Below the pieces are notes generated by a model. That model ran no database searches, was not told the DNA's origin, and saw nothing but the letters and a program-made list of their open reading frames with translations. A stretch of 64,000 nucleotides of DNA from Tetradesmus obliquus. Lineage: Eukaryota > Chlorophyta > Chlorophyceae > Sphaeropleales > Scenedesmaceae. The DNA lies in contig CP126203.1 of assembly GCA_030272155.1 (NCBI GenBank), positions 4,532,501-4,596,500 on the forward strand, read 5' to 3'. Shown here one piece after another: positions 16,125 through 58,332 of this stretch (position 1 is the stretch's first letter; each line of letters starts with the position of its first letter). Both the position numbers and the translations under genes were made by a program.

Positions 16125-16125
16125 C

Positions 16126-27872: not shown

Positions 27873-27884
27873 AGTGCAGCCCTG

Positions 27885-33740: not shown

Positions 33741-36700
33741 ATGGCTCTGACAATGCAGCGTGCATCCACCGCAAGGGTGGCAGGCAGGAGGGTTGCTGCC
33801 CCCCGCATGGCCCGCGTGAGCCTCAGCCGCGGCAAGTTCGTTGTGCTGGCAGCCAAGAAGTCCGTGGGCGACCTCGGCAAGGTGAATGAGCCTGGTCAGC
33901 GCCTGATCACCCGCCCTGGACGCTCCGCAGCCCGCTTACATCCTCGGCGCTGCTTCGTTTGCTGCAGGCTGAGCTCGAGGGCAAGCGTGTTTTCGTGCGT
34001 GCTGGTAAGCAGCCAGCTGCAGGCAATTGGGCTCCGCAGGACCTGCCAGTGTCGAGCAGTGCCAGGCTCCATCCATGCACTCGCCAATTCTCACCGATCG
34101 CTGCTGCTCTTTGCCTTCGCAGACCTGAACGTGCCCCTCGACAAGGTAAGGCCATCACAGGCAGCGCTCGCGTGCAGGATTCCTGCTTAGCTGCCAGGCC
34201 AGCAGGTGCTGAAATATCCCACGCCTGGTGCCCCTGCAGGAGCAGAAGATCACCGACGACACCCGCATCAGGGCTGCCGTGCCAACCCTCAAGTATCTGC
34301 TGGACAACGGCGCCAAGGTGCTGCTCACCTCCCACCTGGTGAGTGCCTGGGTGGATGAATCCCAACCGAGCTCGGCAGTTTTCCTGCTGGGGGCCCTCGT
34401 TCGAACCCGCGCCTTACCAATTACGCTTTTTATTTTGCAGGGTCGCCCGAAGTCTGGCCCTGAGGACAAGTTCAGGCTGACTCCCGTGGCACCCCGCCTG
34501 GGCGAGCTGCTGGGCAAGCCAGTGAGTGCTGCTCGATGCAGCAGCTGTCACGCAGCGCCAGCCGCGCATTGGGCAAAACGCTGAACGTATTGTGGCTTTA
34601 TATTGCAGGTGAAGAAGCTGAACGACTGCATCGGCGAGGAGGTGGAGAAGGCCGTGGCTGAGGCCAAGAACGGCGAGGTGGGCAGAAGCAGCAGCAGCAG
34701 GACTTGACCTGAGCAGTAGCAGTGGCAGCAGCTGGGGCGGCAGGGCATGAAGCGGGCAAAACGGCACTCACATCAGCAGCGTTGGAATGCACAGAAAGGA
34801 GCACCACCTGCCAACAATGCCTTGTCCCATGAGTGGCAATTGCATCCGTCAGCGGGCACCTGGTGCGCTGTGCAGGCGAAACAGCAGCAATTGCGCACTG
34901 TTGACACAGCTCTACTGACAGCACCCCTCAGCACATGAGTGCTACAGCTGTGCCTGAAGCTCTTGCTGGGCTTGTCTGTTTTGCTGCTTTGCTGCTGCTG
35001 CTGCTGCTGCCGCAGCTGCTGCTGCTGGAGAATGTGCGCTTCTACAAGGAGGAGGAGAAGAACGTGGCCGAGTTCGCACAGAAGGTGCGCAGCACTCGCC
35101 TAGCTTGTTTAGTGTGTTCGGCTTGGACTAAAATATTTGCTGATGTTGTGTACTGCACAGCTGCCCACACATGTGATGCACGCTTGCAGGGTTATGAACT
35201 CGTTGCCAGCCTCTCTCGGCATTGAGTGTGCAAGCTGCAGTGGATTGCCAGCAGCCGCTTCCTGTGCAGCATTGCATGCGCAGCTATTCCAGTAACATGC
35301 TGATGGCTATCAGTTGCTGGTGTGCCGCGTATCTACAGCGCATGCCAGCTGCTCTGCACATTGTGGGTGATGGCCCCGGCAGCTGCTTGCTCACCCAGCT
35401 AATGCTCCCTGTCACATATCTGCCGACCCTGCTGCTGTATTGTTTTTTGTTTGAATTTTTCCTGCAGCTGGCCGCCAACGCCGACATCTACGTGAACGAC
35501 GCCTTCGGCACTGCCCACCGCGCGCACGCCTCCACCGAGGGCGTGACCAAGTTCCTGAAGCCCAGCGTGGCCGGCTTCCTGCTGCAGAAGGTGCGGTTAC
35601 TATGATTTATTGATGCTGCGAAGTATTGTTTGCTGCATGTGGACTTCATTGAGGGTGTGACCAAGTTCCTGAAGCCCAGCGTGGCCGGCTTCCTGCTGCA
35701 GAAGGTGCGTCGCAGCGCTCTCATTGCATCGTCGCAAATCTTGTGTTGAATGTCTTTTCTGCCTGAGTCAAGCATGCTGCAGCCAGTGATTTGTGTGCGT
35801 AGCCATGCCAAGCGATGTGCGGTGCAGAGCTGCTTGCTGTGTTGGTGCAGCTGCTGGTCACAGCTCACTGTTTCCCACAGTACCTCATCTCCTCCTATTT
35901 CTGTGCATTCATGACAACTGCAGGAGCTGGACTACCTTGATGGCGCTGTGTCCAACCCCAAGCGCCCCTTTGCTGCCATCGTGGGCGGCTCCAAGGTGTC
36001 CTCCAAGATCACCGTGATCGAGTCCCTGCTCAACAAGGTGGACGTGCTCATCATTGGGTGAGTGTCGGGGTTTTGCACATCGTTTATCTCAGGGTTTGGA
36101 GAAAGGCTGGACCCTAGACAATGGCATGCGTGTGAATGAGGCCCTGCTCAACAAGGTGGACGTGCTCATCATCGGGTGAGTGGCAGAGGCATACCTCTGA
36201 AGATGCAGCTGAAGTATCTAGTCTGTCAGATAGATGGAGCCTGAGCATTAGCATGCGTGTGACTGAGTCCCTGCTCAACAAGGTGGACGTGCTCATCATC
36301 GGGTGAGTGGCGGGGTTTTGCAGCAGCAAAGTGCGTACACCTTGAGTTGACGATTGAAAGCTCAAACCCCTAGACATTGTCGTGCGTGTGGTAGACGCGC
36401 TGCTGAGTTCTTTGGACCGTGGTCACATCTAGACTTGCGACATTTATTGATGTTTGTTAAGCCGTTTTGGCTGAAGTGCAGTGGTGGCGGCATGGTATTC
36501 GACTTCTACAAAACACTGACGACTGTTCTGCCGCACTGCTGCCTTTTACTCTTTATCCTTTCTCCGCTGCAGTGGCGGCATGGTGTTCACCTTCTACAAG
36601 GCCCGCGGCCTGGGCGTGGGCAGCAGCCTGGTGGAGGAGGACCAGCTGGAGCTGGCCAAGAAGCTGGAGGTCATGGCCAAGGTGCGGAAGAAAAGTGATT

Positions 36701-39037
36701 TCTGTAAATTTCAATCATATGACATTGTCTTATTGCATAGATTAGTAGTTTAAGCAACAAGATTAGGCAGAGCTGGCCAAGAAGCTGGAGGTCATGGCCA
36801 AGGTGCAAAGAACACTATATCATCCATTGGTTTTGCATATATAGTTTTAAGACAGCCATGTATGTGATAGTAGTAATGGGCGCAAGGACCAGCTGGAGCT
36901 GGCCAAGAAGGTGGAGGGCATGGCCAAAGGTGCGGGGACATGCATTGATTCTACCAGCTGATTGCATGGGGCTGCCATGTATGAGCAGTTGTTGGACAGA
37001 GCTTGCCAAGAAGCTGGAGGTCATGGCCAATGGCGTGAAGGGCAGGTTGTGGCGAGGGCTGGCTTTGTGTACATGATGATGCTTTCCATATACGTGATAA
37101 AATGATGATGCTGTTTGACTGTGCATGGTATTGCTTGGTAGCACTCGCTCGATCCTGCTGCGCCACTGCTTACGCATGCTGCTGCTGCTGCTGCTGCTTT
37201 CCTCTTCACCCCTGCAGGAGAAGGGCGTGCAGCTGCTGCTGCCCGCTGACGTGGTGGTGGCGGACAAGCTCTCACAGACTGCTCCGCTGCTGCTGCTGCT
37301 GTTTCTTCTTATCTGTTCAACCCCTGCAGGAGAAGGGCGTGCAGCTGCTGCTGCCCACTGACGTGGTGGTGGCCGACAAGTTTGACCCCAACGCCAACAC
37401 ACAGACCGTGTCCGCGGAGAAGATCCCTGACGGCTGGATGGTGAGCTGCCTGATGTAGTGGTTTTCATTTAGACAGTAGTAGCAGCAGCAGCAATGCCAA
37501 GAATAAAAACAGCTTGCAGGAATGTCCGCTGACAAGATCCCTGACGGCTGGATGGTGAGCTGCTATCAATGCAATGGCGTGCATTTAAACAGCAGCCTGA
37601 GCAGCAGCAGCAGCATTGCACTAGATAAAACACAGCTTGCAGACAGACCGTGTCCGCAGAGAAGATCCCCGACGGCTGGATGGTGAGCTGCCAAAACAGC
37701 CGATTTGTAGAGTACAACTCCCTTGTGGAACCAGCAGCAGCAAAGCACAATGGTTGTAAAGCAGCCTGGCTTGTGGTGGGAGAGCTGCAGGGCAACGCCC
37801 GGGAAAAAGATGCAGTGCAACGCAGGAACAGTACATCCAGTAATGCGCGTGGGGAACAGTTGAACAACCATGCGCATCATGCTCACCGTTCTGCCTGTCT
37901 TATCCGCTGTGTCCTTCACTCTGCAGGGCCTGGACATCGGCCCCGACTCCATCAAGACCTTTGAGGATGCCCTGAAGACCTGCAAGACTGTGGTCTGGAA
38001 CGGCCCCATGGGCGTGTTCGAGTTCGACAAGTTCGCCAAGGGCACATACGTGAGTAAAACGCATGGATGCTGCTGCTGCTGCTGTGTGTTGTGCAATGAG
38101 TGATTTGTGTTTGGCAAAAATGCCAAGGGCACCTGTGTGAGTGACAACTTGAGGCTGCTGCTGCTGCATGGTGTGCAAGTGCATGCTGTAGAGTCAAACT
38201 CCCATGACAGTACAGCCTGGCCAATGCGCTTGCGCCCTACAGCACTCCCAGTGCTCACCATTGCTGCTGCCTGCATCGTTATTTCTGCTTGGTACAACAG
38301 TCCATCGCCCAGACCCTGGCTGAGCTGACCCCCCAGGGCACCTGCACCATCATTACAGCTCACTGACAACTATCTGCCACTGCCTGCGCTGTTATTTCAT
38401 GTGTTGTAACAGTCCATCGCCCAGACCCTGTCTGAGCTGACCCCCCAGGGCACCTGAACCACCATCATCTTTGCTGACCAAAACCCTGCTGCCGCTGCCT
38501 GTTACTTTTGCTTGTTATAACAGTCCATCGCCCAGACCCTGGCTGAGCTGACCCCCCAGGGCACCTGCACCATCATCGGTGGCGGTGACTCCGTGGCAGC
38601 AGTGGAGAAGGCAGGCCTGGCCGAGAAGATGAGCCACATCTCCACCGGTGAGTGTTTTCTACTCGCTCTGCTCATGTTTATTGGAGCAGCAGTTTGGAGC
38701 GGGTGTGGTTAAGTGCAGCACTGCCGGGAGAGGGTGCTTGCATGCAGAGAGAGCACCAGCAGGGGGTGGTGGCTAGATTTCGGTCACTGGTGCGTGCACT
38801 CATTGCAGCGCAAGCCGTGCATGGTTTGCTGGGAAACTGCTGCAATGCGTAGAGGCAGGTTGCTAGCACTAGCATGGCGTGCAGTGCTCCTTCTGCCGTG
38901 TTGCTTTACCCAGTCTCTGTGTGGTCCAGCTAAGCCTGACAACCTTCTCTGCTGCTGCTGCTGCAGGTGGTGGTGCCTCTCTGGAGCTGCTGGAGGGCAA
39001 GGTGCTGCCCGGCGTGGCTGCCCTGGACGAGAAGTAA
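33741..39037 (+). CDS. PGK1: Chloroplast phosphoglycerate kinase
   Basis: Catalyses ATP + 3-phosphoglycerate to 1,3-bisphosphoglycerate in the Calvin-Benson cycle. Fourteen exons close in frame to 437 aa: 33741-33881, 33968-34004, 34123-34145, 34240-34338, 34441-34521, 34609-34677, 35016-35084, 35468-35590, 35924-36057, 36573-36681, 37330-37440, 37927-38049, 38524-38647 and 38967-39037. Residues 1-~37 are Ala/Arg/Ser-rich, a plastid transit peptide. Family motifs run in order: [67 protein letters not shown] and the end [15 protein letters not shown]...ALDEK. Length fits algal plastid PGKs (roughly 460). Introns hold about 13 partial copies of neighbouring exon edges, so the true exon set was chosen by frame and family continuity; two of the alternatives have splice signals on both sides. 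Confidence 0.95.
35651..35704 (+). repeat. Copy of the 3' edge of PGK exon 8
   Basis: 54 bases nearly identical to 35537-35590, followed by a functional-looking GTGCGT donor. One difference from the exon is synonymous. It lies in the intron before exon 9 with no nearby acceptor of its own. Confidence 0.85.
36138..36302 (+). repeat. Two copies of the 3' edge of PGK exon 9
   Basis: 36138-36175 and 36265-36302 repeat the last 38 bases of exon 9, each with the GTGAGTG donor. Both are preceded by a shared GCATGCGTGTGA motif, so the duplicated unit is about 127 bp and includes intron sequence. Confidence 0.85.
36481..37030 (+). repeat. Copies of both edges of PGK exon 10
   Basis: 36481-36514 copies the start of exon 10 with its own GTGCAG acceptor, ahead of the real exon at 36573. 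After the exon, 36770-36802, 36887-36929 and about 36999-37030 copy its 3' edge ([11 protein letters not shown]), the first two still followed by GTGC donors. The copies are progressively degenerate. Confidence 0.8.
37218..37269 (+). repeat. Copy of the 5' edge of PGK exon 11
   Basis: Repeats the first 52 bases of exon 11, with the CCCCTGCAG acceptor, 112 bp ahead of the real exon. The donor is lost (GACAAG then CTCT), so it cannot be spliced as a simple exon. It encodes Ala where the real exon has Thr in LLP(A/T)DVVVADK. Confidence 0.85.
37520..37682 (+). repeat. Two mini-exon-like copies of the 3' edge of PGK exon 11
   Basis: 37520-37554 and 37643-37682 repeat the IPDGWM end of exon 11. 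Unusually, each has both an acceptor (AGCTTGCAG) and a GTGAGC donor, so each could be spliced in as a 35- or 40-base cassette. Either alone shifts the frame, and both together create a stop at the junction. Confidence 0.75.
38122..38136 (+). repeat. Short copy of the 3' edge of PGK exon 12
   Basis: The 15 bases GCCAAGGGCACCTGT followed by GTGAGTG mirror the end of exon 12 and its donor. Confidence 0.6.
38301..38470 (+). repeat. Two copies of the 5' edge of PGK exon 13
   Basis: About 38301-38354 and 38414-38470 copy the first ~50 bases of exon 13 with their ACAACAG/GTAACAG acceptors, at ~110-bp spacing ahead of the real exon at 38524. Neither has a donor; the second carries an in-frame TGA. 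Confidence 0.85.
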
Positions 39038-39038
39038 G

Positions 39039-39102: not shown

Positions 39103-41550
39103 AGCGTGCAGCTCTGGCGGCTTTCTGACGGTAGCAGGCGCTACTTGGGCAGTTGTCTTCCATGTGGCTGTGATGGCAGGCTTGGTGTATGCGGATTGCA
39201 CTGCTGTTGTGCATCCCGATGACCAGACATGGCAATGAACAGATTTTGTGCAGCATGCAGGCAGCGGTTGCGGTACATAGGCGCGCATTCAGCCCATTTG
39301 CATGAAGAGAATGCAGCTGTGCCACAGTTTTGACGGACTGGCTGCCGCGTCTTGCAGCAGGGGTTGCAGCAGCAATTTCTGCTAGGAATGCTGCTGCAAA
39401 ACCCTGCTGCAGCGCGCAGCTTGTGTGGAGAGTGCGAGAAAGAGTGAGCAGGCACGCTCACCTTCCACCGGCAATGTACGGGGAAGGAGCGTTGCCGCAT
39501 ATTGCAAGGCGTAGCGCATGTGTGCTTGACTCCGAGTGTGTTTGCAGTTGCAGGCAGTTGTGCACATCTGTGTGCAGTGTGTGTTGGTGCCCGGCAGCCG
39601 CCCGTGCGGTGTGCTGTGGCATGTGGATTGGGGAAACAAACAAACAGATATCTGCACATCACTACACCCCGGCTGTTGACAGCAATGTTGCTGCAGGCTT
39701 TTGACACTGCTGGTGTTTGGGCCGTCACCAACATGTCAGATCCTAAGCCCCAAGGCGTTACCATCTGCAGCTGCAAACCGTTTGCAATCGGATTTCCTGC
39801 AAGTCAGTACACGTGTGCATGCAGTGCGCACTGCAGCTGCTGGCAACCAAGTCAGGAGCAGTCTCGCTTGCATACGATGCACATGCAACAGACCAACTCT
39901 GCCACACCGCAGCTCTGGACTGATGCTTTGGCTGCAGCATGCATGACGCCAATGCAAGTCAAACCAGAAACGACCCTTGTCAGAACAGAAACAGTCCTGG
40001 TCAAAACAGAAACAATTGTGCGGCACAGAGTCCAACTGCTGCGCATCAGCAGGCCGTGAACCTGCCATGGATCATTGTCATCTTCATCACTAACAGCAGC
40101 AGCACAGGCAGCCGGTATCCTGTATGGCAGCACTGACGAAGATAGGCGAGCCGCACCTTGATGCAGTGCAGTCGCCCTATGCAGCAGCAGGTCGATCGTC
40201 AGACCAACAAGTATACTATAGTATGCCTGCAACAGCACACGCCTGCAGCATGCAAGCCAGACAGCGCTGAGAGTGGCGGCAGCACAAGTGCTGTTCCATT
40301 CAGCAAAAGCCCCCTAGGCAGCATAACATGCATGCATTTCAGATCACATGTATCTGATAGTTCACAGGTAGACCTTATGAAGATCACAGGTGTATCACAG
40401 GCAGCAAAGGAACGCGCGACCAAACACGCGCTACAACACATCCAAAACTGCATGCTGCAGTGAAGTGCAAGACAGCACTGCACAGCGCCGTGTACATTCC
40501 ATACCGGCAAGCCACCCCCCACACCAAGACTGTGATGCAACATGGCCCTTAGCCTTTCTCAGACAAACACGCAAGCAGCCAGTACTACTAGTAGGACTGC
40601 AATTGCTGGAGGAAAGTGTGATCATTGGTGGGTGACAAAACAACATGGTCGCATGATGGCTGCCTTGCAGGCAGTTGATGGCAGTGCGGTGTGCTCTAAA
40701 AGTAACAAGCGTAACACCAACTTCAGCGGTGCAGTAGACTGCCATACACCAAACACCAAGGCTTGACCAACTTGGTCAGGCCTTGAAAGCTGGTAGCAAA
40801 ATCAGCGGGCCTCAGCAAGCCACAGGCGAAGCTTGCTGTTGGTCACTGGATTAAAGCACCCGCAGGCACGCACTGTAAAGTGGGTGCAATGTATGAGGAC
40901 ACTTTATAAACTGTGACCTATGGCACGGGAAACACGTACGTACGTGAGCAAACCCCACTAACAAACTCGTTGCAAACCAGTGCAAACCTGAGCGAGTGAC
41001 TGGAAAAAACCCATGGGCTGCTGGGGGTAAAGCACCACCGGCAGCAGATCCAAATCTTTGCCTGTCACATGCGTGCCTCTTCAACTCAATTCGAGACTGG
41101 CCACATCTCTGGAGGTTGTGTGTCATGCATTGCCTCAGGCATGGCTTGCCAGCACACTTCCAATCCAATCCAATCCAATTCGCCGCATCACACCAATCAA
41201 CGTAGACTCAACGCACACGGTATGGCAAACAGACACACAGGTGAAGCTGAAGCATAGCGTGTGCATCTTCACAAGCTCCTGCCAGCACTGCTCTCCAACT
41301 ACACGCATGCACATGCGTGCACAGAAGGCACAAACCAATGATTGCAGCTGCCAGCGTCAGCTGCGCCTGCACCACAGTCATCATCATATTGCCCATCAAG
41401 CCACAGCAGTAATGTCAGCTGCGCCTGCATTGCAATGTCATGTCCAAATCAGGCTGCGGCAGCGCCTGTCATCACTGGCCATCAACAGACAGCTGTCAAC
41501 GCCATCTGCGCCTGAATTACATCACTTCACTCTTGCCTGATCGCATCATG
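39103..41550. other. Intergenic region between PGK and the oxidase gene
   Basis: About 2.4 kb between convergent genes. A (CCAAT)n pentanucleotide tract lies at 41160-41180. A TTACA at 41517-41521 is TGTAA on the minus strand and may be the poly(A) signal of the oxidase. No PGK poly(A) signal was found close to its stop. No other gene is evident. Confidence 0.45.
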
Positions 41551-41712
41551 CTGTGGCTGTGCCTGGCACTGGGGGCTTGTAGCCGGGGCACCCGCCATCC
41601 GCTGGCAGTGTCAGCGCCAGCTGCGCCTGCATCACTTCAGCCTTGTATCAACCAGGCGACGGCTGTTCCTGGCACTGGCGGAGTGCATCCGGGGCACTCG
41701 CCATCCGCAGGC
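41551..41712 (-). repeat. Copies of the 3' coding end of the oxidase terminal exon, in its 3' UTR
   Basis: Segments at about 41551-41606 and 41660-41712 repeat the last ~55 bases of the oxidase coding region (GECPGYTPPVPGTATA), downstream of the stop at 41757. This parallels the array after the left-edge gene. Confidence 0.7.
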
Positions 41713-41756
41713 AGCCTCACCGTTGGCTGTGCCTTCCATCAATCTGCATGATTGCA

Positions 41757-41896
41757 TTAAGCTGTGGCTGTGCCTGGCACGGGTGGTGTGTAGCCGGGGC
41801 ACTCGCCATCAGCCGGCTGTGCATCATCAGGGAAGCCGGGGCACTTGAACAGCACCACCTTCATGCAGCCCAGGTCCTCATGCATCAGGTAGCTGC

Positions 41897-41938
<42 letters not shown>

Positions 41939-44900
41939 AGAACAGCTGGTTAATGAATAGTCACAGTGGTGGTAAGCAGTGCCACCGTCATGCAGCCTCG
42001 TGCATCAGGTAGCTGCAGGACAACAGGACAACAGGGGTACGGCCAGGCAATTCAAAGAACTGAGCGGTCAATCACAATTGACACGATTTACCAGAAAATT
42101 GCAGCATGAGATGAAGGTGGGCAGGCAGGCAGTGTGTACGCATTGCTGGCAGACGCATGCATTTTGTTGTGTTCTACAGCCAGCACATTATGTCATGATT
42201 TGAGCACGTGTATGTAAGCTGCAGAGGGCCGCAAAGGGCTGCATGTGAGCCTTGCTTTAGCTCAGCCAAAAGTAGCCAGCTACTCACTGGCAGTGCATCA
42301 CGGAGTAGCCTGTGAAGGCGCCTGGCTGGAAGCGCAGCGTCAGCGCATCAGGAGGGATGGGCGTGTAGAAGGGGAACAGCAGCGTGTCGTAGTAGTCGCC
42401 AATCTGCACAGCAAGGCGGAGCAGCAGCAGCAGCGGGAGCAGCAGCAGCAGCAGCAGCAGCACATTGTCAAGTAGGAAGCATGTCGTACTAATCCCCAAG
42501 CTGCACAGCAAAGCGGCACCAGCAGCAGCAGCAGCGTCATTACTGGCGGTGCGGCAGTAGTCAACGGCTGCTGCGAAGCACACACATGACAAAGGCAAGT
42601 AGTGAAGATGCTGCGCTGCACCTACCAGTGCCCGTCAACGCACCAGCTGCATCACTCTGGTGGTGCACTTGAATGCCACAAGAGGGGTGGACACCACTAT
42701 ATTCATGATGAAGGCATCACAGCATGCAAGCACACCTTGTAGAAGTTGCTGGTGAAGGGTTTGGCCCCAGCCTCCAGCAATGCCTTGTTGAATCCCACCA
42801 GCTGGAAGGGGTTGGTGTGCACCTGCAGCAGCAGCAGCAGCAGTACGGAGTTGTGCTGACAGATACGTGAACAGCTGGCATGTGGTGAGAGCACAGCTGC
42901 GACTGGTCTTGTGCGGGCTGGACGGCCATCTGCCCTCAAAAGCATGCGGCATGGCAGCTGGTGCACACCTGGAGTGACATTTAATGCTCATTGTGCCACA
43001 CGCAGTGCTATGCACTGATTACAGAACTTCCAAAGCTGAAAAATGTGCGCTCACGTGCAGGGGATGGAAGACTGCATCGTTGAAGTCCCACTGCTGAATG
43101 GTGCCTATGTTCATGGTCAGCGGGTTGGGATCGGGGAAGGTGAAGCTCTGGTTGTTCACCTCGCACGCAAACTGCCTGCAAGTTGCATGAAACATAAAGA
43201 TTGAGCAGGTGGTTGACACAAGGAATATCAAAAACATGGGGTATAAGAAAGTTGCAGCTCTGGTTGTTCACCTCACACGCGAACTGCCTGCAGGTTGTAC
43301 GAAACAAGAAAAAAATGAGCAGATGGTTGACACAAAGAATGTTGGAGCATGGGGGTTAGGGAAGCTGAAGCTCTGGTTGTTCACCTCGCACGCAAACTGC
43401 CTGCAGGTCGAATAAAGATTGAAGACACAGAAAAGGGCGGCAGCATGCGCAGCAGTCAGTGATGTGGCAAGGCTTGTGGTCAGTGGGGCAGGGAGGCTGA
43501 GGCGCTGGTTGTTCACCTCGCACGCAAACTGCCTGCAGAGCATCAAAACAAAGGGACGGCGGCAGCATGGCAGCAGTTAATGATGTGGCCAGGCTCATGG
43601 TCAGTGGGGCAGGGAAGGTGAAGCTCTGGTTGTTCACCTCACACGCAAACTGCCTGCAGGTTGCATGAAACAAGAAAAAAATTGAGCAGATGGTTGACAC
43701 AAAGATTATCGAAATCATGGGGGTCAGGGAAGCTGAAGCTCTGGTTGTTCACCTCACATGCAAACTGCCTGCAGAGCATCAAATAAAAGGGGCGGCGGCA
43801 GCATGGGCAACAGTAAGTGGTGTGACCAGGCTCTTGGTCAGTGGGGCAGGGAAGCTGAAGCTCTGGTTGTTCACCTCGCACGCAAACTGCCTGCAGAGCA
43901 TCAAAACAAAGGGACGGCGGCAGCATGGCAGCAGTTAATGATGCGGCCAGGCTCATGGTCAGTGAGGCAGGGTCAGGGAAGGTGAAGCTCTGGTTGTTCA
44001 CCTCACACGCAAACTGCCTGCAGGTTGCATGAAACAAGAAAAAAATGAGCAGATGGCTTGACACAAGGATTATCGAAATCATGGGGGTCAGGGAAGCTGA
44101 AGCTCTGGTTGTTCGCCTCACATGCAAACTGCCTGCAGAGCATCAAATTAAAGGGGCGGCGGCAGCATGGGCAACAGTAAGTGGTGTGACCAGGCTCTTG
44201 GTCAGTGGGGCAGGGAAGCTGAAGCTCTAGTTGTTCACCTCGCACGCAAACTGCCTGCAGAGCATCAAAACAAAGGGACGACGGCAGCATGGCAGCAGTT
44301 AATGATGCGGCCAGGCTCATGGTCGGTGGGGCAGGGTCAGGGAAGGTGAAGCTCTGGTTGTTCACCTCGCATGCAAACTGCCTGCAGGTTGCATGAAACA
44401 AGAAAAAAATGAGCAGATGGTTGACACAAGGATTATCGAAATCATGGAGGTCAGGGAAGCTGAAGCTCTGGTTGTTCACCTCGCACGCACACTGCCTGCA
44501 GGATGAATGAGGTCAATGGCACAGAAAAGGGCGGGAGAATGGGCGACAGTCAGTGACGTGCAGCATAAGCGAGTGAAGCCTGCATTGTAGCATGTGTCAG
44601 GCGCAAATGTGTGTGCTGCAAGGGTGGGTGATCGGCGTGCTTGCTGCAGCTTTAGCTGTCCGCAAGCCTCACTGCATGCAGCACACGATTCATATAAACT
44701 CTGCGCTGCACGGCTGCTACAGATGACACCAAAAAGGTTGGGATGCACAGGGCATGCGGCAGCCATGAATAATTCTGAGCCATGTGGTCAGCCTCAAGTG
44801 CATGCCACATGCATGCATTCCTGATTAATCCACATGTATGTCCAAGCCCAGCCGGGATGCAGCCCATCCAGCAGCACAACCAGGCGCCACATTCACACAA

Positions 44901-47701: not shown

Positions 47702-47740
<39 letters not shown>

Positions 47741-48315: not shown

Positions 48316-48348
<33 letters not shown>

Positions 48349-51198
48349 GTGGCCTGCTCACCTGGGCGCAGCCTGGTGCTGCTGCCTGGGGCATCCAGGC
48401 CTCAAAATCGTCCTCAATCAGCACTGCACACAGAGCAAGAGAACAATCTCAACTCATCAGATTGGAAAGTGGACAGAGTCAGTCAGATTGAGGACAGGGG
48501 CTGTAAAGCATACGCAGGCGTAACGCCAAGCTCAAAAAGGGCAACAGATGCTGACCCACAGCAGTTGCAGCTGGCGCCTGCAGCACTGGCCATGTCATGC
48601 ACAGCACAACAGCATCCTTCCTGCTGCTTCCTCTTGCAATGCCGCTGCATACCGCTGTGTTACTTAGGCCGACAATCAACTGCATGCTGCAAGAAACCGC
48701 GCACGTAGCTTTGCTGGCAGCTGCTGCTGCTGCATTGCGCACCTGCAAAGTGCGCTGATGACACCTGCATGAAAGTAGAGCCTGCGGCACAGCAGACACA
48801 CAGCAGCAGAGGGCAGGCAGCAGACAGCGACGTCAGACGGTTGTGGCAGACACACAGCAAGCAGCAACAGGTCAATCAGTGCATCACATTGCGGCACATA
48901 GCGGCACATTCTGTGAACTGTTTCCCAGTGTTCACGGGAGCGGGTGCAGTTCCATACCGTGCTTGTGTGCGTGCGCCCAGGCCAGCCCCGGCAGGCGGCT
49001 GCTAGACATATCAAGTGTCCATTGCATGTACTCTCAGCACTGCAACAAGCCACCATGGTCCAACAAACATATGGGCAGCAAGCGTCAGCCGCTTACCGTG
49101 CTTGTGTGCGTGCGCCCAGGCCAGCCCAGGCAGCTACCTATAGGTGGCTGCTGGACATATCAAGTATCAAGTGCATGTACTCTCAGCACTGCAACAAGCC
49201 ACCATGGTCCTGTAGTTTAGGCAGCAGCCCCCAGCCGCGTACCGTGCTTGTGTGCGTGCGCCCAGGCCAGACCCGGCAGGTGGCTGCTGGGCAGCGTCCC
49301 CCTGAAGGTGAGCGTGTTGGGGCGCTGCGCTGCACTGCTGCGAGCCTTCAGCTTGACGAATATGTTGTCATCACCCTGCGGCAGCATCAGGGACAGTGCA
49401 TGTGCATGCAGCATACAAGCGGTGAATGTTGAGCGGCTGTGCGGGGCGTGTCAGACGATCTGCATCACCCTGTGCCAGCATGACCCCCTAAACTCGCTTT
49501 TTTGCCGGCGCTGAGCTTTATTTAGCCGCACGCGCCGGCGCGCCGGCAGTTATCACAGCACTGGATGTGGTGGTTGAAGAAAGAGATGGCTACATGTGGA
49601 TTCTGGCTGCATCATTCGGCAGAACATGCATGTAGGCACTGCTGCTGGCCTTCAGCTCGACAAAGATGTTGTCATCAGCCTGCGCCAGCATGAGTGAGAG
49701 GTGGTTGGTAGTTGAAGGAGAGGTGATTGCATTTGTGGGTCTTGGCAACGCCTTACGGCACTGCTGCGGGCCTTCAGCTTGACAAATATGTTGTCATCAC
49801 CCTGTGGCAGCATCAGGGGGCAGTGCATGTGCATGCAGCATACAAGCGGCGAATGTTCGGGGCGTGTCAGGCGATCTGCATCACCATGTGCCAGCATGAG
49901 ATGTGGTTGTTGAAGAAATAGGTGGCTACAGTAGGTTCTGGCTGCATCATTTGGCAGAACATGCATGCATGGCCGTCTGCCAAACTGTCACAGCTGCCTA
50001 CAGCTCACGTCCACAGCGTGCCTCTGCAGCCGCAACCCCGTCGATGCTGGCGCCGCCCCTACTGCTGCTGCTGCTGCTGCTGTTGCTGTGCATCACGGCT
50101 GTGTGGCCCCACCTTGTACTCAGTGGCAGTGGCATGGCTGGGCAATCCTGTTGCTGCCACTTCTGCTTCTGCTGCTGCTGCCGCTGCTGCTGCTCACCTA
50201 GTATTCAGTAGCAGCGGCCTGGCTGGGTACTCCTGTCACTATGTACATGCACAGCTTTATGACAACCCTGCTGCCCTACAGTCCCGTCGCCGCTGCTGCT
50301 GCTGCTGCTGCTGCTGCCGTGTGGCATGATTCACCTTATACTCAGTGGCGGTGGCCTGGCTAGGCACGCCTGTCGCTGCATGCAGGCCATGCAGGTGCAG
50401 GTTGGTGTCGCCAGGGCCAAACCAGTATTCGCCGTGCTCAGGAACATTGTCTTCGTTGGGGTCAACAAGCGCGTTTGTGATTGTCACATCGTAGGACTGG
50501 CCCCTGCAGGTGCAGCGCAGGAACATATGATGATTGAGCGGGTCTACAGGAGAAATTAAAAGTCACGTAATCAGGCCCATTTGCATTGTCACATCGTAAG
50601 ACTGGCCCTTGACAGCGCAGCAAAGCGCATAAGCCGGGAAGGTGGCGTCAGCGAGGCTGCTGTTGACAGGAGGGTGCAGAAGGCAGACTATATTGGTGAG
50701 CTGGACACATTCAAGCGGACCAACACCATCAGAGGGCGAGTCAGCTGCTTCAGGCAGTGTTGTATCAGTGTGCAGCTGCACTTGGCGGACGTGCCAGGTG
50801 GAGAGTTAGCGTCACTCTTCGCACCGCAGAACATCAAACTACAGTGGCTGTGGCTGCGGGCTGCCTCTCACCTGGTCAGGTGCAGCGTGGGCCCGAAGGC
50901 AGCCACCTGCTCTATCAACATTGTGTCAACTGATTGGACTAGCAGTCTGTCAGTGCAGCTGCATGAGGGCGAGCATTCAGGCTGCCCTAGCATTGTAGCA
51001 GCTGCAGCCTGTGCGTTTTCGACAAAGGTATTGCATGTGCATGCATGGAAGCAGGATAGTCAACTACGTTGCGGGCTGCCTCTCACCTGGCCAGGCGCAG
51101 CGTGGGCCCGAAGGCTGCCACCTGCTGCTTGCCGCCATCCTGGATGTAGCCTGGCTGCGTGAACTCCACCTGCAGGCCCTGGCCAGGCACAAACAGCT

Positions 51199-51260
<62 letters not shown>

Positions 51261-51949: not shown

Positions 51950-53676
51950 GATTACTGTAGTTCGCTGCGACTACCTGTGTTTTGCAGGTAGTGTGTGTGT
52001 CTCGGCGAGCAGGCACGGCCTACAGATGTCCAGGCCGGGCTGTGAATTCATTGATATGATTAGATAAGAGAGGTCATAACAGAGCCGCTTGTCTGAACTT
52101 TGTGATGCTGAATTTAAACTAAAGACGCTAGTAGTATGGTTTGACGGCGACTTGGAAGTATCGACAAGGTCGAGTCCGCAGTCTCGGATATCTCGGCCGG
52201 GTCAGCTTGCAAGCAGCTGCAGCTGCACAGTGATACCTGCACAGCAGGCTGCTTGTGCCTAACTTCTCATGTGGGGAGGAAGTTGACCTGTGTATGCCTT
52301 TCATGTATTCAAGCAAGGATGTTGCCCACCTCGTAAGGAAGTGTGCACACTGCTCACAGCCACTGGCACCTGCACGGCGCTGGACAAACTGTTCAGCAAG
52401 CAGGCAACACCTGACCTGAACTTGAAACTTTGCCAGGAGGCTGCTCTGTGCTAGCAGCAAGGCAGCCGAGGCTTTGCACCTGGTACCACTCGGTGTCTCT
52501 GGCTGAGGGCAGCAGTTGTTGCAGCTGCTGCGCAAGGGCTTCCAGGTTCACTGCAGCCCCACGCCAGCAGCGGTGGCAGCAGCAACAGCAGCAGTCCCAC
52601 AGCAAAAGCAGCAGCAGCAGCAGCAGCAGCAGCAATGGGGCCCATGCTGGTCTTTGAGCTTTATCTTGTTCAGCAGCCGCAGCCAGGCACAACAAGCTGG
52701 CAATGCACAGGCCTCCTGAGCGACCCAACTGCAGCATACCCTACATTAGCCGACTGTGCTGAGCAGCTGTGCCGCAGCACTGCTTGCCAGGCTGTGCATG
52801 GATTCAACAGCATCCTGCTGGTGTTGTTGCCTGCAGGCAGCTGCTGCTGCTTGCAGCAGCTGCTGCAAGCCAGGAGGTGCAGCTTCGCCTGCAGTGTGTC
52901 CTTATGGCGCCATGGCATCAGCTAGTTTGTCAACATGCGTTTGACAAAGAACTGCTGGGGTGACTGTGTCCGGGCTGTTGGGCTTGCGCCTCGTGGCACA
53001 CAGTGGCACTGCTCTCTCGACAGAAGAGTTTCGCAAGGTGGCTCATTGCGTGCACAGCATGCGGTGTTGACAGAGACAGCACTGCAGTGTGCTGCCGGGC
53101 GACAGGACCCATGCAATTACTGGGCATAGACTCCCTGCATGCTGCAGCCTGCAGCCGTCACGGCCATGAGTCACAGCCGCAGTAGAGTGCACAGCAGCTG
53201 CCAGTGCAAGTGCTGCTTCAGCATGCTACCTAGAGCAGCTGCACCATCTGATAACGCTACGCTACTCAATGTCATGCTGTTACTTTGAGTGCGAAGGCAT
53301 GCGCAGCAAGAGCATGTGAGCAGCTGTCGCGTCATCTGTGCCGGGTTGCAATTGCAACTGCCCGGTGACGAGTACTCTAGGTTAGTATCACACCCAGCTG
53401 TCAAGCACACCCCTCACTAGCACAGAAATAAATATGTGGGTATAACCTTTTTTAATTAATGCAACGAACGCACCTTTGCCATTTAGGCCTCGAGCACTCA
53501 TACAGTACGCACTGCGAAGCTCCATGTATTTTTATATAACTACGTCGATCAACTGGGTGAATCAATGTATTGAGTAAGTTACCAAAAACAATCGATTTGA
53601 GACTGTTGCAGCGTTGCTAGACACCAGTAATAATAGGGGTTATCAGTCGTAAAAAGTGACAGTGCTGCTGCTTCGC
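51950..53676. other. Shared upstream region of the oxidase and protease genes
   Basis: About 1.7 kb between two divergently transcribed genes for secreted proteins. It contains a CAG run at about 52605-52634 and otherwise no supported exon. Regulatory elements for both genes probably lie here but none can be named beyond the TATA-like site at 53677. Confidence 0.5.
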
Positions 53677-53684
53677 CATATAAG
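53677..53684 (+). promoter_or_regulatory. Putative TATA box of the metalloprotease gene
   Basis: CATATAAG lies 138 bp upstream of the ATG at 53822, in a GC-rich setting that makes it stand out. Confidence 0.4.
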
Positions 53685-53821
53685 CCGCCCGGATCAGAGG
53701 ATGGCGAGCCATCACAGGAGAAGTGCAAATCATTCCATAGTTTCAGCCGACGTATTAGCAAGTGCATGTCCTAATACTCCCCTTCATTGTTTGCCAGTGT
53801 GCTTAGCAAACCCTCAGCTGG

Positions 53822-56800
53822 ATGGACCGAAAACTAACTTTGATCCTGTTATGTTTGGTAGTCTGTTTTCAGTTAGTTAATAGCCGTCTGCAGCCGCGCG
53901 ACGGCAGCCCAGTCCGCAACACCGGCCCAAGCACACCACCCGGGCAGGGGCATTCAGCAAGAGGCGGCAACGCTGTCAGGTTCAATTTTAAATCAGAAGG
54001 TGGTGCCATGCGAGTGCTTGGCAGGCAGCAGCTGTCGCAAATCAGCTCCCGGGTCGGTTACCAGGGAGACCTGCGCACGCTTGCATCACACCTTGACGAT
54101 GACGATGATCTGGTGCGTGATAGATGAACGTATAGGTTATATATATGTTTTCTGGCAACAGTCGGTTGGATCAGCAGGATGAATGTGCCAGTAGTGCTGT
54201 ACATAATCAGGCAGCTGCTGTGTCTGGCATTTGCACATACTGCTCAACTGCCAGAGCAAGCCTTTGTGAACGTCAGAGCTCGCAGGCATGCCAATACGTT
54301 CAAACCAGGCATTACAATCACTGCATGTGCGTTGCACCATGACATCTGTGCAGTTCATAGCAGCTGTCACTGCACTCCGCCTACACCCACAGCCCACCAG
54401 CTGTACATTGCACACCAGCATCGAGTCTATATACGCACATGCCAACCCTAATGCTGCACCCTCCATACAACTGACTCACTCCCTGGCCATCCTGCAAAGC
54501 AGAACTTGAACATGCAGCAAAACCACACAGCAGCTCATCTCACCACCTGTCATACTTCCACCTGCTGCATACCCCTCCCCCTCCCAGGGCGTCGAAGCAG
54601 CATCCAACCGCCTCACTTTCCAATGCGCCGGCCTCATCGCCAATGCATCAGCCGCCGAAATTGCCGCAACGCAAGCCGTCATCGAACAAGCCACCGCAGC
54701 AGCGGTGGGCCGCCGCCAGCCGCCGCAAACCCCCGCTGCAGCCCCGCAAGCCTTTCCTCCCACACTTGTTGGAGGCACACCCGACCCCACTGGGCTGTCT
54801 GCTGCTGATGCTTTCAGCCTGCATTCAAGGCCAGGGGCAAGGCTCAAGCTGGTGTTAGATTTTAATGGCAACACTTTGGTTGGCGGTGTGTGGAATCAGG
54901 CCAAGGGTCTGCAGCAGATCGTGACGCCTGCATATGACAAAGGTGGGTGGGGTGCAGGGTGCTCAGCCGCAGCACTGCAGTGCAAGCGTCATGCACTTGC
55001 GCATCAACGATTGTTAATCGTCTGCATTTCAATGCAAGCAAGCCACTGCTGTTAGGCCACCAACACAGCGTGCCGGACATGTGCCTCACGTGTTGCTGCT
55101 GCTGCTGCCATGCTGTTCCGTGCTTTTTTGTGCAGACGGCAACCCAAGCTCATTCAATGCCGAAGAGATTGCAGACATAGTGGCCATATGGCACGCAGTG
55201 GCAGAAGGTGAGCAAGCAAAATCGCATTACTTTACAACATGGTTGTTGCTTTTCAGTGCGCTTGGGCTATACAGCCTGATGCATCTGCGCCTTGTGCTTC
55301 TGCCTGCTACGCACTATGGTGTGTCATCGCATTGAAAATGTAGGCATGATCCTTGCTGTTGCTTGGCAGAGAGGTACATACACCAGTCAAAGATGCTGCA
55401 TTGTCTTAGCCGCAACCCGCCATGCATTTGGAAGCGATTATCAAATCGCGTTGCTCACCACCCACCGCCTGACAGTGCATGTGCTGCGTGTGCTGCTGCT
55501 GCTGCTGCCGCTGCAGACTATGCTGCATTCGACGTTGACGTCACAACAGCAGACCCTGGAGATGCAGCACTCGCAGGCGTCGGCCAAAAGGTGCTCATCG
55601 GAGGCCACTCTGGCGACTGGTATGGCAATGCAGGCGGCGTCGCATACGTCTCGAGCTTCGGCACTCCCGGCATGCCTTGCTTCGTCTTCCCGCGCAACCT
55701 GGGGCCAAACTATGCCAAGTATGTGTGGGAGGCCGTGTCACACGAGCTGGGGCACACCCTGGGGCTGTTCCATGATGGTTTAACGCCAAACCCTGCGCCT
55801 GGAGCGCTGTACCCTGATGGGACTTATTACTACTCCGGCCATGGCAACTGGGCACCCATCATGGTGAGCGCCAGCAATGCATATCTCGGCAGTGCATAAT
55901 GCATTTGTTCAGGATTATGTCGCCTTTGTAGCATAGTCAGATGACATTTGTGCTTGCATGCACCCATCATGGTGCGCGCCAGCAATGCAGCTACGCATAC
56001 CTCTGCAGTGCATTTGGTGTGGGTGTAAATGTGAACATGCCGCCTGTGTAGCACAGTGACATGACATCTGTGCTCGCATGAGCGGCGGCCGCACGTATCT
56101 CTGCAGTGCATATGTTGGTCAGGCGCTGCCCCTGCAGCACCGTTGGAATGCATTTGTGCTTGCATGCCAGCTGCTGCTGCAGCAGCACCTCAGGCTTGTG
56201 CATGGCTGTGAAGATGAAGCTGTCCTCACCAACTATTGTGGCTGCTGGCCAACTGCTGCAGGGTGTTGGGTACTACAAGGACGTCACACAGTTTGATGCT
56301 GGCGAATACCCTTACTCCAACAACCCACAGGTGAACATCACAGAGCATCTGCTGCAGAGTACTTCCAACCTGGCAGCACTTGCAGGAACAGCAGATCCGG
56401 CAGCCTCTGCAGCGCAGGCATGTGTTAAACAGCGTGCACCTTGTTGACTATGCCAACAACCACATGCTGCCTGATGCTCTGTGACTGCGGCGTCGCCTGC
56501 ATGAGCATGCTGTACTGATTGGGCCATTCAGTGCCAGCTGTACACCTGCATGACAAACTGCCTGCTGCTGCTGCTGCTGCCGCTGCCATCTCTCTCTCCA
56601 TTCAACTATCCGCAAACAGGATGACATGGGCATCATCGGCAGGACCCTGCCGCGCCTGCCACAGCAGTATGGCCCCTCCATGGCTTCTGCCACCCCTCTG
56701 TCCAGCAGCGGCGCAGGCAGCACCACAGCTGTTATTAACGGCATCCTCTCTATGCCCAACCAGCCAGACTGGTTCTCCCTCTCCGCAGAAGCAGGCTCCG

Positions 56801-58332
56801 CAACGCTGGCGGTGGCAGTTACGGCGCCGTTCGGACAAGTGACGCGCGCAAACTTGAACGCCGTCGCTGCTGTCTATGACGCCGGCGGCGCGGTTGTAAC
56901 AACTTTGAGCCCTGGTGGTTTGGACATCCCTTACTCGCCAGTCAACCTTCCACGCGCCGGCACTTATTATGTGTCAGTTGTAGGTGCTGCAGAGGGCAGC
57001 CCAGCAACCGGCGGTTACAGCAGTTACGGGTCACTCGGGTTCTACTCCCTAACTGTTAGTTACACCGCCAGCTCAGCGCCGCAACAGCCGCAAACCCCAG
57101 TCAATTGTGTTGGCTACTGGAGTAGTTTCGGCCCCTGCGATGCCTCCTGCAACCAGGTTTCAACATACGTGATAACACAGGCAGCGGCTAACGGAGGGGC
57201 GCAGTGCCCAGCTGCGGCTGGAGCTACCAGCAGCCAGGCATGCAGTGGTGGTGCGTGTGTGAGGCCTACAGCTGTTGATTGTGTGGGTTATTGGAGCGAA
57301 TGGAGCCAGTGCGATTACCAGTGCAGCCAAACCTCAAAGTATGTGGTGACACAGCCGGCGCAAAATGGTGGTGCTGCATGCCCTGTTGCGGATGGTATGC
57401 TGAGGCAGCAGGCGTGCCAGAGCGACGCGTGCTTGAAGCCTGTTGACTGTGTTGGTTATTGGGGCGATTGGGGAGAGTGTGACGGCCAATGCAGTCAAAC
57501 CTCCAAGTTTGTCGTTGCATGGCCGGCAGCAAACGGCGGCGCTGCATGCCTTGCTGCTGAAGGCCAGCTGAGGCAGCAGGCCTGCCAGGGCGGTGCATGC
57601 AAGCCAGCAGTCAACTGTGTGGGTGCATGGAGCAACTGGAGCGAATGCGGCAGCGATTGCAGTCAAAGCTCCAAGTATGTTGTGACGCAGCCGGCGCAGA
57701 ATGGTGGCGTTGCGTGCCCTACTCAGGATGGTGTGGTGCGGCAGCAGGCGTGTCAGGGCGGTGCTTGTGTGAAGCCTGTTGACTGTGTTGGTTATTGGGG
57801 CGACTGGAGCCTGTGTGACAGCCAATGCACAACAACCTCCAGGTATGTGATCACACAGCCGGCAGCAAATGGCGGAGCAGCATGCCCTGCTGCATCTGGG
57901 GAAATCCAGAAGCAGAATTGTCAGGGAGGCAGCTGCAAGCCAGCCGATACTGGCATGGTTGTGACAGGTATCAAAGTCACCCGCGAGGTTTTTAAAACCC
58001 CAGTTCGTAGTAACACAACAGGCCGGGGTTCAGCCCAACCCCGGGAGATGTTTTGGTGCAAGGCAGTTGTCACTGTCCGTACAACTGCCGGTGCTCCGCT
58101 TAGAAAGGCGACTTTGTCGGGCACATGGTCTGCGCCGGATAATGCAGCATTTGCCTCACGCGTTGCATTGCTTGAGACACGTGCCAGTGGGCAAGCTGTG
58201 TTCCGGTCCAAGACAACCAGGGTTGAGGGTGCTGGCACAGCCTGCGTGTTCACAGTTGATATTGTGCTGTACCCTGGCAGGTCGCTGGACGTTTCAAAGT
58301 CGGTGTTTACATCGTCATACAGCTGGAGGTAG
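53822..58332 (+). CDS. Secreted metzincin metalloprotease with five TSP1 repeats (ADAMTS-like)
   Basis: Six exons close in frame to 948 aa: 53822-54112, 54588-54942, 55136-55207, 55517-55863, 56262-56330 and 56620-58332. MDRKLTLILLCLVVCFQLVNS is a signal peptide. A propeptide-like region (to ~215) precedes the catalytic domain, which has HELGHTLGLFHD (H315, E316, H319, H325), the HEXXHXXGXXHD zinc site of reprolysin-type metzincins, and a Met-turn APIMG (M355). After NNPQ-DDMGIIG comes a ~150-residue domain resembling a PPC/beta-sandwich module. Five thrombospondin type-1 repeats follow (about 540-591, 598-649, 654-705, 710-761, 766-817), each starting CVGxW with six Cys, then a ~130-residue C-terminal domain. 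It probably cleaves or binds extracellular matrix or cell wall. It differs from gametolysin, which has QEXXH at the zinc site. Confidence 0.92.
55964..55998 (+). repeat. Copy of the 3' edge of protease exon 4
   Basis: CACCCATCATG then GTGCGCGCCAGCAATGCA repeats the exon end (real copy ending 55863, GTGAGCGCCAGCAATGCA) about 115 bp later. TCTCTGCAGTGCATA-like intron sequence recurs near 56000 and 56098, so the duplicated unit includes intron. Confidence 0.75.

What the first reader, a model, noticed from the sequence alone, without database searches (positions are those of the whole stretch)
33741..58332. Recurrent exon-edge duplication across independent genes
PGK (about 13 copies), the oxidase (about 24), the protease (one or two) and the left-edge gene (ten or so) all carry partial exon copies that always span an exon boundary, either a splice site or the stop codon, with 15-95 bp of exon and some intron. 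Copies lie beside the parent exon in the same orientation. This looks like a genome-wide process of local tandem duplication anchored at exon borders that lengthens introns and creates decoy splice sites. I know of no name for it.
Basis: partly seen in the sequence, partly recalled or inferred. Interest (0 to 1): 0.85.

Follow-up and report, generated by a model that had tools for sequence, protein, structure and literature searches.

The report
Exon-edge tandem repeats lengthening algal introns
In the green alga Tetradesmus obliquus many introns carry short head-to-tail copies of the edge of the neighbouring exon, most likely left by frequent local tandem duplication of about 115 bases; much the same pattern was named 'exon stuttering' in chicken in 2026.

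Summary
The copies are real. In 20 stretches of 10 kb, 161 local repeat matches are same-strand and 7 opposite, with a spacing peak at 100-150 bp. A screen modelled on the chicken 'exon stuttering' screen finds copies of an adjacent exon in 27 of 142 predicted introns (19 of 111 outside the window). Where arrays have three or more units, exon and intron parts are duplicated together. Changes private to copies are even over codon positions while parent exons change mainly at third positions, so the copies behave as non-coding.

'Anchored at exon borders' is largely geometry: a tandem copy can lie in an intron only if the unit straddles the border, and copies across a stop codon need no splicing. 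Of 81 arrays in genes 47 touch an edge (26.6 expected), 31 are intron-only. Among the youngest copies the edge excess vanishes under a strict filter (5/154 against 55/1623) but not without it (16/223); an excess of about twofold in older copies is unexplained. The phenomenon is named (sequence/exon stuttering, PMC12954441). Its spread through an algal genome is the new part.

The parts
33741..39037 (+). PGK gene, 14 exons, parent of 13 exon-edge copies
   Evidence: Open frame joined from 14 exons; T. obliquus PGK P0002 matches
35644..35709 (+). copy of exon 8 3' edge plus donor; in P0002 annotated as an extra 17-codon exon
   Evidence: 93.9% over 66 bp at +114; P0002 has [17 protein letters not shown] twice
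36132..36182 (+). copy 1 of exon 9 3' edge plus donor
   Evidence: 92.2%, +118
36259..36322 (+). copy 2 of exon 9 3' edge plus donor
   Evidence: 93.8%, +245
36484..36511 (+). copy of exon 10 5' edge
   Evidence: 89.3%, -88
36770..36806 (+). copy 1 of exon 10 3' edge plus donor
   Evidence: 100% over 37 bp, +121
36885..36935 (+). copy 2 of exon 10 3' edge plus donor
   Evidence: 94.1%, +247
36999..37030 (+). copy 3 of exon 10 3' edge; match stops one base short of the donor
   Evidence: 96.9%, +350
37177..37268 (+). copy of exon 11 5' edge with acceptor and upstream intron
   Evidence: 90.3% over 93 bp, -111
37523..37609 (+). copy 1 of exon 11 3' edge plus donor and intron part
   Evidence: 79.3% over 87 bp, +114
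37640..37692 (+). copy 2 of exon 11 3' edge plus donor
   Evidence: 94.3%, +242
38104..38178 (+). weak copy of exon 12 3' edge plus donor
   Evidence: 67.5%, +87
38278..38353 (+). copy of exon 13 5' edge with acceptor, farther one
   Evidence: 94.7%, -223
38402..38466 (+). copy of exon 13 5' edge with acceptor, nearer one
   Evidence: 93.8%, -111
43143..44486 (-). oxidase acceptor-edge array, 12 units spaced 112-132 bp, with the triplet 115,122,127 twice; parent unit probably the one at 43143 (inferred)
   Evidence: tandem arrays also
41534..41821 (-). oxidase last-exon end and stop codon (parent 41745-41821) with downstream copies, the best at 41534-41610
   Evidence: alignment across the stop; period 106 x2.7
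42478..42534 (-). copy of oxidase exon 42288-42403 5' edge
   Evidence: 82.5%
48955..49133 (-). two copies of oxidase exon 49243-49375 3' edge (48955-49008, 49074-49133)
   Evidence: 92.6% and 88.3%
49636..49832 (-). two copies of oxidase exon 49243-49375 5' edge (49636-49700, 49758-49832)
   Evidence: 84.6% and 93.3%
50110..50240 (-). two copies of oxidase exon 50335-50503 3' edge (50110-50157, 50169-50240)
   Evidence: 85.4% and 74.0%
50567..50621 (-). copy of oxidase exon 50335-50503 5' edge
   Evidence: 76.8%
50855..50911 (-). copy of oxidase exon 51087-51196 3' edge plus donor
   Evidence: 94.7%
55852..56080 (+). protease array, two units, spacing 108, near an exon end
   Evidence: 71.9%; exon end not settled by the gene models

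Best explanation
Local tandem duplication of DNA pieces, mostly about 85-155 bp long (mode about 115), is frequent in the genes of Tetradesmus obliquus. When a piece straddles an exon-intron border (or the stop codon), one unit keeps the working exon edge and the other falls into non-coding DNA, so the gene survives and its intron grows by one unit. Pieces inside exons are purged, and pieces inside introns drift until they are hard to see; this makes the surviving, recognisable copies look anchored at exon borders. The first copy seeds further units, probably by unequal exchange or slippage, giving arrays and higher-order repeats. Copies are not coding and decay as debris, some with intact-looking decoy splice sites. 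This works like exon stuttering described in chicken. Shown: same-strand tandem units, non-coding evolution of copies in bulk, occurrence in most stretches sampled, longer introns with copies. Inferred: break repair or slippage as the source of the first duplication, purging inside exons, unequal exchange for growth.
For: Same-strand 161 against 7 opposite, with a spacing peak at 100-150 bp, in 20 stretches on 17 contigs. In arrays of three or more units the intron parts of consecutive units are homologous in 22 of 27 pairs. In 36 nearest pairs (of 41 parent edges; 5 with spacing over 200 left out) the aligned stretch covers at least 85% of the spacing in 18, against 6.4 with the intron side shuffled, and the intron side beats all 20 shuffles in 23. 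Polarised changes in 20 arrays: private to a copy 42/29/35 at codon positions 1/2/3 (p=0.30), parent against all copies 3/6/18 (p=0.0009). GT kept in 31 of 41 donor copies, as expected from exon-part identity 0.87 squared. Screen modelled on the chicken one: 59 proximal same-strand, 0 proximal opposite, 10 distal hits; 27 of 142 introns (19 of 111 outside the window), 13 of 25 genes; source within 1 base of the border in 41 of 59 (2.8 expected at random). Copies across a stop codon. Three-unit higher-order pattern in the oxidase array.
Against: A neutral simulation with uniform tandem duplication gives edges 0.8-1.1 times the rate of plain intron, whereas observed edges exceed plain intron 2.4-fold (46/223 against 139/1623), and 1.7-fold after dropping the window and ambiguous edges (23/154). 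In single-copy pairs within 200 bp only 5 of 17 have significant intron homology, and of five with exon part >=0.93 only two (PGK exon 8: exon part 30/30, intron z 0.0); plain neutral tandem duplication does not predict that. Exon-derived parts of consecutive intronic copies differ less (74/826) than intron parts (258/1672 plus 146 gap openings), although copies were found by their exon part, and the simulation reproduces much of that bias (exon 0.85, intron 0.68). Purging inside exons is weakly shown: 3 exon-interior arrays against 6.3 expected, and exon-interior windows (19/297) are not rarer than windows outside genes (103/2473).
Confidence: 0.75

Rival explanations
1. A mutational process that prefers exon borders (for example breaks or stalled forks at nucleosome or composition boundaries, or a transcription- or splicing-linked lesion) creates the duplications there.
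For: Edges 46/223 against plain intron 139/1623; 47 edge arrays against 26.6 by random placement, 0 of 2000 shuffles reach it, and 35 of 64 against 18.2 without the window; the neutral simulation gives edge/intron 1.0-1.1, a three-fold border bias 1.6-2.0. Youngest class, all edges: 16/223 against 55/1623, p=0.014.
Against: The youngest class shows no excess under the strict filter (5/154 against 55/1623). The stop codon serves as a border too. 31 of 81 arrays are intron-only with overlapping periods.
Confidence: 0.17
2. Exon copies are refreshed by gene conversion from the constrained parent exon, so edge arrays outlive intron-only arrays; birth is uniform and survival is not. (This can hold together with the best explanation.)
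For: Exon parts outlast intron parts; the excess sits in the older class under the strict filter; some pairs have an intact exon part and no intron homology.
Against: Part of the contrast is ascertainment; conversion tracts were not shown; 22 of 27 intron parts are still homologous.
Confidence: 0.3
3. Functional copies: spare exons or decoy splice sites kept by selection to regulate splicing or to add peptide repeats.
For: The T. obliquus PGK record P0002 includes the exon 8 copy as an in-frame exon; many copies keep GT or AG.
Against: Copies change evenly over codon positions; GT retention equals that expected without selection; several PGK copies read by eye would not be multiples of three as cassettes; the three other PGK proteins read (P0004, P0011, P0013) lack the insert. 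AG retention (31/33) is above expectation, but the search window favours it.
Confidence: 0.05
4. Assembly error.
For: None found; raw reads were not on hand.
Against: Copies commonly differ from their parents by several percent and by indels (mean exon-part identity 0.87 over 69 copies), and occur in 20 of 23 sources.
Confidence: 0.02

Closest known systems
Sequence stuttering / exon stuttering of avian dot chromosomes (PMC12954441, Genome Biol Evol 2026)
   Same: Imperfect local tandem repeats in introns; part of the adjacent exon including the splice donor or acceptor is copied into the intron; exons stay intact; intron-only arrays occur as well; exon part median 36 bp there, 44 bp here.
   Different: There mainly on dot chromosomes (190 of 5,572 dot-chromosome introns, 3.4%); here 27 of 142 sampled introns over many contigs, GC about 56%, period centred on about 115 bp, fewer copies (median 2 against 4). 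Screens differ in exon annotation, masking and review, so the percentages are not strictly comparable. Intraspecies length variation, a main feature there, is untested here.
Intron gain by tandem duplication across an intron-exon boundary (potato RdRp, PMC4974935, passages read)
   Same: The elementary step: a tandem unit holding the end of an intron and the start of the next exon.
   Different: There one event made a new working intron; here copies mostly seem to lie unused inside existing introns and form arrays. The annotated PGK model of P0002 would be such a gain if real.
AGGT tandem genomic duplication model of intron gain (passages of the review PMC3443670; Gao and Lynch 2009 and Hellsten 2011 known only through citing papers)
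   Same: Internal tandem duplication supplies splice-site copies.
   Different: Needs a duplicated exonic AGGT; here the unit already contains a real splice site and existing introns lengthen.
Small tandem duplications from break repair (CST and Pol alpha-primase fill-in, PMC8355091, passages read)
   Same: A known route to local direct tandem duplications.
   Different: Shown in mammalian cells at induced breaks; no link to this alga was tested.
Introners (PMC9860276, one passage read)
   Same: Intron gain on a genomic scale.
   Different: Mobile-element families; here the copies found derive from their own neighbouring exon.

Membership tests
Sequence/exon stuttering (PMC12954441) | Introns rich in imperfect local tandem repeats, tens to hundreds of bp per unit | tested here: met
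   130 arrays in 23 sources, L019 left out; same-strand repeat coverage 17% of predicted intron bases
Sequence/exon stuttering (PMC12954441) | Edge fragments of the adjacent exon with its splice site copied into the neighbouring intron | tested here: met
   59 proximal same-strand hits at >=42.1 bits, 0 proximal opposite, 10 distal
Sequence/exon stuttering (PMC12954441) | Source within 1 base of the exon border in more than 90% of cases (their measured value) | tested here: inconclusive
   41 of 59 within 1 base, 48 of 59 within 5; 2.8 expected at random. Lower than in chicken; exon edges come from an ab initio finder, so some are misplaced
Sequence/exon stuttering (PMC12954441) | Coding sequence left intact | tested here: met
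   PGK frame open through 14 exons; other genes not checked one by one
Sequence/exon stuttering (PMC12954441) | Extensive intron length variation between individuals | not testable with these tools
   No second strain or reads on hand
Sequence/exon stuttering (PMC12954441) | Association, not one of the authors' three main features: concentrated on special GC-rich chromosomes | tested here: not met
   Arrays in 20 of 23 sources over many contigs; a weak GC correlation only, rho 0.44, p=0.03, n=23
Intron gain by tandem duplication | The new splice sites are used, creating a new intron | tested here: inconclusive
   P0002's PGK model uses the exon 8 copy, but it is an annotation; no RNA data on hand. 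Pooled copies show no coding constraint
Introners | Unrelated genes share one family of inserted sequence | tested here: inconclusive
   Not searched across the genome. Within genes 59 proximal against 10 distal hits; within the window only 5 of 65 same-strand matches lie more than 3 kb apart

The most novel reading that the evidence does not exclude
Tetradesmus obliquus has a continuing process, spread over its genome, that lengthens introns by duplicating exon borders preferentially, with a characteristic unit near 115 bp set by a particular lesion or chromatin feature, and exon-derived copies are refreshed by conversion from the parent exon, so that about a fifth of introns hold spare splice sites.
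Probability: 0.15. Interest if true: 0.82.

Novelty: new member of a known kind. Interest (0 to 1): 0.6.

Why it matters
Exon stuttering was described in 2026 in chicken, with gerbil genes mentioned as data not shown and mechanisms only speculated on. A culturable green alga (recalled) in which about one sampled intron in five carries such copies would make the mechanism open to experiment, would show that the process is not tied to dot chromosomes, and gives a concrete route by which introns grow; T. obliquus introns averaged 462 bp against 230-302 bp in four other green algae in one published table (PMC5966456). It also warns annotators: copies can be called as exons, as may have happened in the PGK record. 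That no alga has been reported with it rests only on the ten library searches listed in the report, of which only some named algae.

Tried and rejected
Spaced insertion of an exon edge without intron: suggested by young pairs with an intact exon part and diverged spacer (only 9 of 50 pairs at >=95% identity had a match as long as 0.9 of the spacing) and by single-copy pairs; disfavoured, not excluded, because intron parts are homologous in 22 of 27 consecutive units, in 15 of 19 nearest pairs of multi-copy arrays, and the intron side beats all 20 shuffles in 23 of 36. My extension is permissive: 6.4 of its 18 near-complete units would be expected with a shuffled intron side. RNA-templated origin: disfavoured because copies include intron bases past the junction. 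Splicing-caused origin: disfavoured by stop-codon copies. Coding use of copies: rejected in bulk by codon positions. My first gene finders overpredicted and were replaced by a conservative one that gave 12 of 14 PGK exons exactly; PGK trained its splice matrices, so this is not independent. L019 was left out of the outside-gene class and of the arrays because a long array fills it (113 of 119 windows outside its gene). The plain-intron class leaves out windows that resemble a flanking exon (66 of 77 positive) and coding-like windows (7 of 62); the simulations used the exon filter too. G-quadruplex density did not correlate clearly with coverage (rho 0.29, p=0.17). The exon-versus-intron divergence contrast first looked like strong evidence for conversion; the simulation showed that much of it is detection bias.
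Full report
WHAT THE SEQUENCE IS. The window is G000:C13:4532501-4596500 of a 104.66-Mb genome in 17 contigs. Contig C13 is 5,023,913 bases long, exactly the contig length given for P0002, 'hypothetical protein OEZ86_009421 [Tetradesmus obliquus]', the most similar PGK listed (96% identity over 95% of the query). So the genome is Tetradesmus obliquus, a green alga.

THE OBSERVATION. PGK joins from 14 exons into an open frame of 437 codons. Aligning each exon with its flanks finds 13 partial copies on 8 edges of 6 exons, all same-strand, 87-128 bp from unit to unit. The oxidase holds a 12-unit acceptor-edge array spaced 112, 113, 132, 121, 115, 122, 127, 115, 122, 127, 114; the repeated triplet 115, 122, 127 is a higher-order pattern. 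Nine more edge copies lie at four other exons, and an array crosses the stop codon. The protease has one array. The left-edge repeats are there, but the gene model is not good enough to place them on exons.

IS IT GENOME-WIDE? Twenty 10-kb stretches at fixed positions (1 Mb on each of 17 contigs, 3 Mb on three) gave 161 same-strand and 7 opposite-strand local matches (within 1.5 kb). Spacing peaks at 100-150 bp, with 48 of 161 between 100 and 159 and a second rise at 220-280. With three later stretches and the window, and L019 left out, 20 of 23 sources hold at least one array. Levels differ: same-strand coverage runs from 0 (L010, L020, L026) to 0.31 (L016), and 0.59 in L019, which is mostly one array.

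GENE MODELS. No annotation was on hand, so I trained a coding model and an exon-chaining gene finder on the window and stretches. After two over-predicting versions a conservative one gave 27 genes and 159 exons, 108 of them strong, with 12 of 14 PGK exons exact. It misses exons, and some windows classed 'intron' or 'outside' will hold unpredicted ones; several of the ten pairs shown look like that by eye.

EDGES AGAINST OTHER PLACES. A 46-base window has a same-strand partner within 700 bp (score at least 24) at 26/109 donor edges, 20/114 acceptor edges, 19/297 exon interiors, 139/1623 plain intron windows, 6/101 and 6/97 windows of intron next to donor and acceptor, and 103/2473 plain windows outside genes (windows resembling a flanking exon, 66/77, and coding-like windows, 7/62 in introns and 7/87 outside, are kept apart). 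Edge against plain intron: p=3e-7. At this score opposite-strand matches were 0 in every class of the earlier run. By arrays: 130 in all, 81 inside predicted multi-exon genes, of which 47 touch an edge against 26.6 (sd 3.7) by random placement in the same gene, 0 of 2000 shuffles reaching 47; without the window 35 of 64 against 18.2. Arrays per 10 kb: 6.3 in genes, 3.1 elsewhere.

WHY THE BORDERS STAND OUT. A tandem copy lies next to its source. If the source unit is wholly inside an exon, the copy is in the exon; only a unit across the border leaves the exon whole and its copy in the intron. Hence visible exon copies should start at the border. The stop-codon array (parent 41745-41821, copy 41534-41610) is the same geometry with no splice site involved. 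Neutral simulations (uniform tandem duplication of about 115 bp, exons protected) gave edges 0.8-1.1 times the rate of plain intron at score 24, with noisy values (0.5 and 1.7) at score 40; a three-fold border bias gave 1.6 to 2.0. Observed: 2.4 for all edges, 1.7 after leaving out the window and edges whose copy lies in a predicted exon (23/154, p=0.012; the intron figure still includes the window and three more stretches). In the highest-identity class (score at least 40) the figures are 16/223 against 55/1623 for all edges (p=0.014) but 5/154 against 55/1623 under the strict filter (p=1.0). I read this as little or no border preference at birth and longer survival of edge copies; numbers are small, and the other reading is kept as a rival.

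WHAT IS DUPLICATED. In arrays with two or more copies the intron parts of consecutive units are homologous in 22 of 27 pairs. Extending outward from the junction in 36 nearest pairs (spacing up to 200; 5 of 41 left out), medians are 51-54 exon bases and 42-79 intron bases, and 18 cover at least 85% of the spacing; with the intron side shuffled 6.4 would, and the real intron side beats all 20 shuffles in 23 of 36. So the unit is usually exon edge plus intron, duplicated in tandem. Against this: intron homology is significant in 15 of 19 nearest pairs of multi-copy arrays but only 5 of 17 single-copy pairs, and in only two of five single-copy pairs with exon part at least 0.93; of 50 pairs at 95% identity or more, only 9 matched over at least 0.9 of the spacing. 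Edge arrays had no period under 77 (0/47) while intron-only arrays had six (6/31, p=0.003); I have no firm reason for that.

ARE THE COPIES USED? Across 41 parent edges with 69 intronic copies, mismatches to the parent fall 60/49/111 on codon positions 1/2/3. In 20 arrays with two or more copies, changes private to a copy fall 42/29/35, changes where all copies agree against the parent 3/6/18 (p=0.30 and 0.0009; the latter may include changes in a common ancestor of the copies). In bulk the copies are free of coding constraint; the parents are not. GT survives in 31 of 41 donor copies, as expected from 87% identity; AG in 31 of 33 acceptor copies, more than expected but favoured by the search window. 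The PGK record P0002 nevertheless contains the exon 8 copy as 17 extra residues that the three other PGKs read lack; without RNA this may be a false exon.

COMPARISON WITH THE KNOWN. PMC12954441 (start of abstract, search passages, and sections 7 and 9 in full) describes in chicken 'sequence stuttering', including 'exon stuttering': partial copies of adjacent exons with their splice sites in introns, in imperfect tandems, source within one base of the border in over 90%. A screen modelled on theirs (simple repeats in introns masked, ab initio exons, no manual review) gave 59 proximal same-strand, 0 proximal opposite and 10 distal hits at 42.1 bits or more; 27 of 142 introns and 13 of 25 genes, 19 of 111 introns outside the window; 41 of 59 sources within one base of the border (2.8 expected); median exon part 44 bp; median 2 copies; introns with copies 613 against 360 bp (p=0.03). 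Their figure is 190 of 5,572 dot-chromosome introns. My shuffled-intron control gave no hit of 20 bases or more. Their feature of length variation between individuals could not be tested. The potato RdRp case (passages) is the single-step parallel; the AGGT model was read in passages of PMC3443670; Gao and Lynch 2009 is not held. Break-repair tandem duplication was read in passages of PMC8355091.

LITERATURE LIMITS. Ten searches, only some naming algae, listed no report that I recognised of exon copies in introns of a green alga; the only paper in the library with 'exon stuttering' or 'sequence stuttering' was the chicken one. Passages of the R. subcapitata genome paper give T. obliquus a mean intron of 462 bp, the longest of its five algae; the main text of the S. 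obliquus AS-6-11 paper has no match for 'intron'; PMC10487979 has none for Tetradesmus or Scenedesmus.

VERDICT. Real, frequent in this genome, mostly explained by frequent local tandem duplication filtered by selection and visibility, and a distant new member of a newly named kind. Open: the source of the roughly 115-bp unit, the roughly twofold residual edge excess among older copies, the single-copy pairs without intron homology, and whether arrays still change length.

Noticed in passing
5847-5998 and 14132-14283: Two similar stretches (90.8%) whose minus-strand frames read like GATA-type zinc fingers (name recalled, not searched).
   Followed up: no
61045-61279: Minisatellite of 34 bp, 6.9 copies, 98% alike, outside predicted genes.
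   Followed up: no
16104-16188, 27802-27884, 19638-19671: Short dispersed element in both orientations, 94% alike, perhaps a small mobile element.
   Followed up: no
57272-57893: Repeats of 168 bp lie in a frame with four TSP1_spondin stretches: coding domain repeats, a different kind from the exon-edge copies.
   Followed up: partly
L001 and L024 (C9:4556633-4559885 and C9:4540430-4543682): Two PGK-like genes 16.2 kb apart, 98.5% alike over 2.6 kb with 6 gap bases: a recent segmental duplication. Whether exon-edge arrays lie in that stretch was not checked.
   Followed up: partly
P0002 against window 35644-35709: The public PGK record of T. obliquus contains an exon copy as 17 extra residues; other records of this genome may hold such repeats too.
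   Followed up: partly
43143-44486: Higher-order repeat of three units (115, 122, 127 bp, seen twice) in the oxidase array, a hint of unequal exchange.
   Followed up: partly
L019 (C16:1000001-1010000): Outside its predicted gene the stretch is almost wholly one local array (113 of 119 windows).
   Followed up: no
arrays: Edge arrays have no period below 77 bp while intron-only arrays do (0/47 against 6/31, p=0.003).
   Followed up: no
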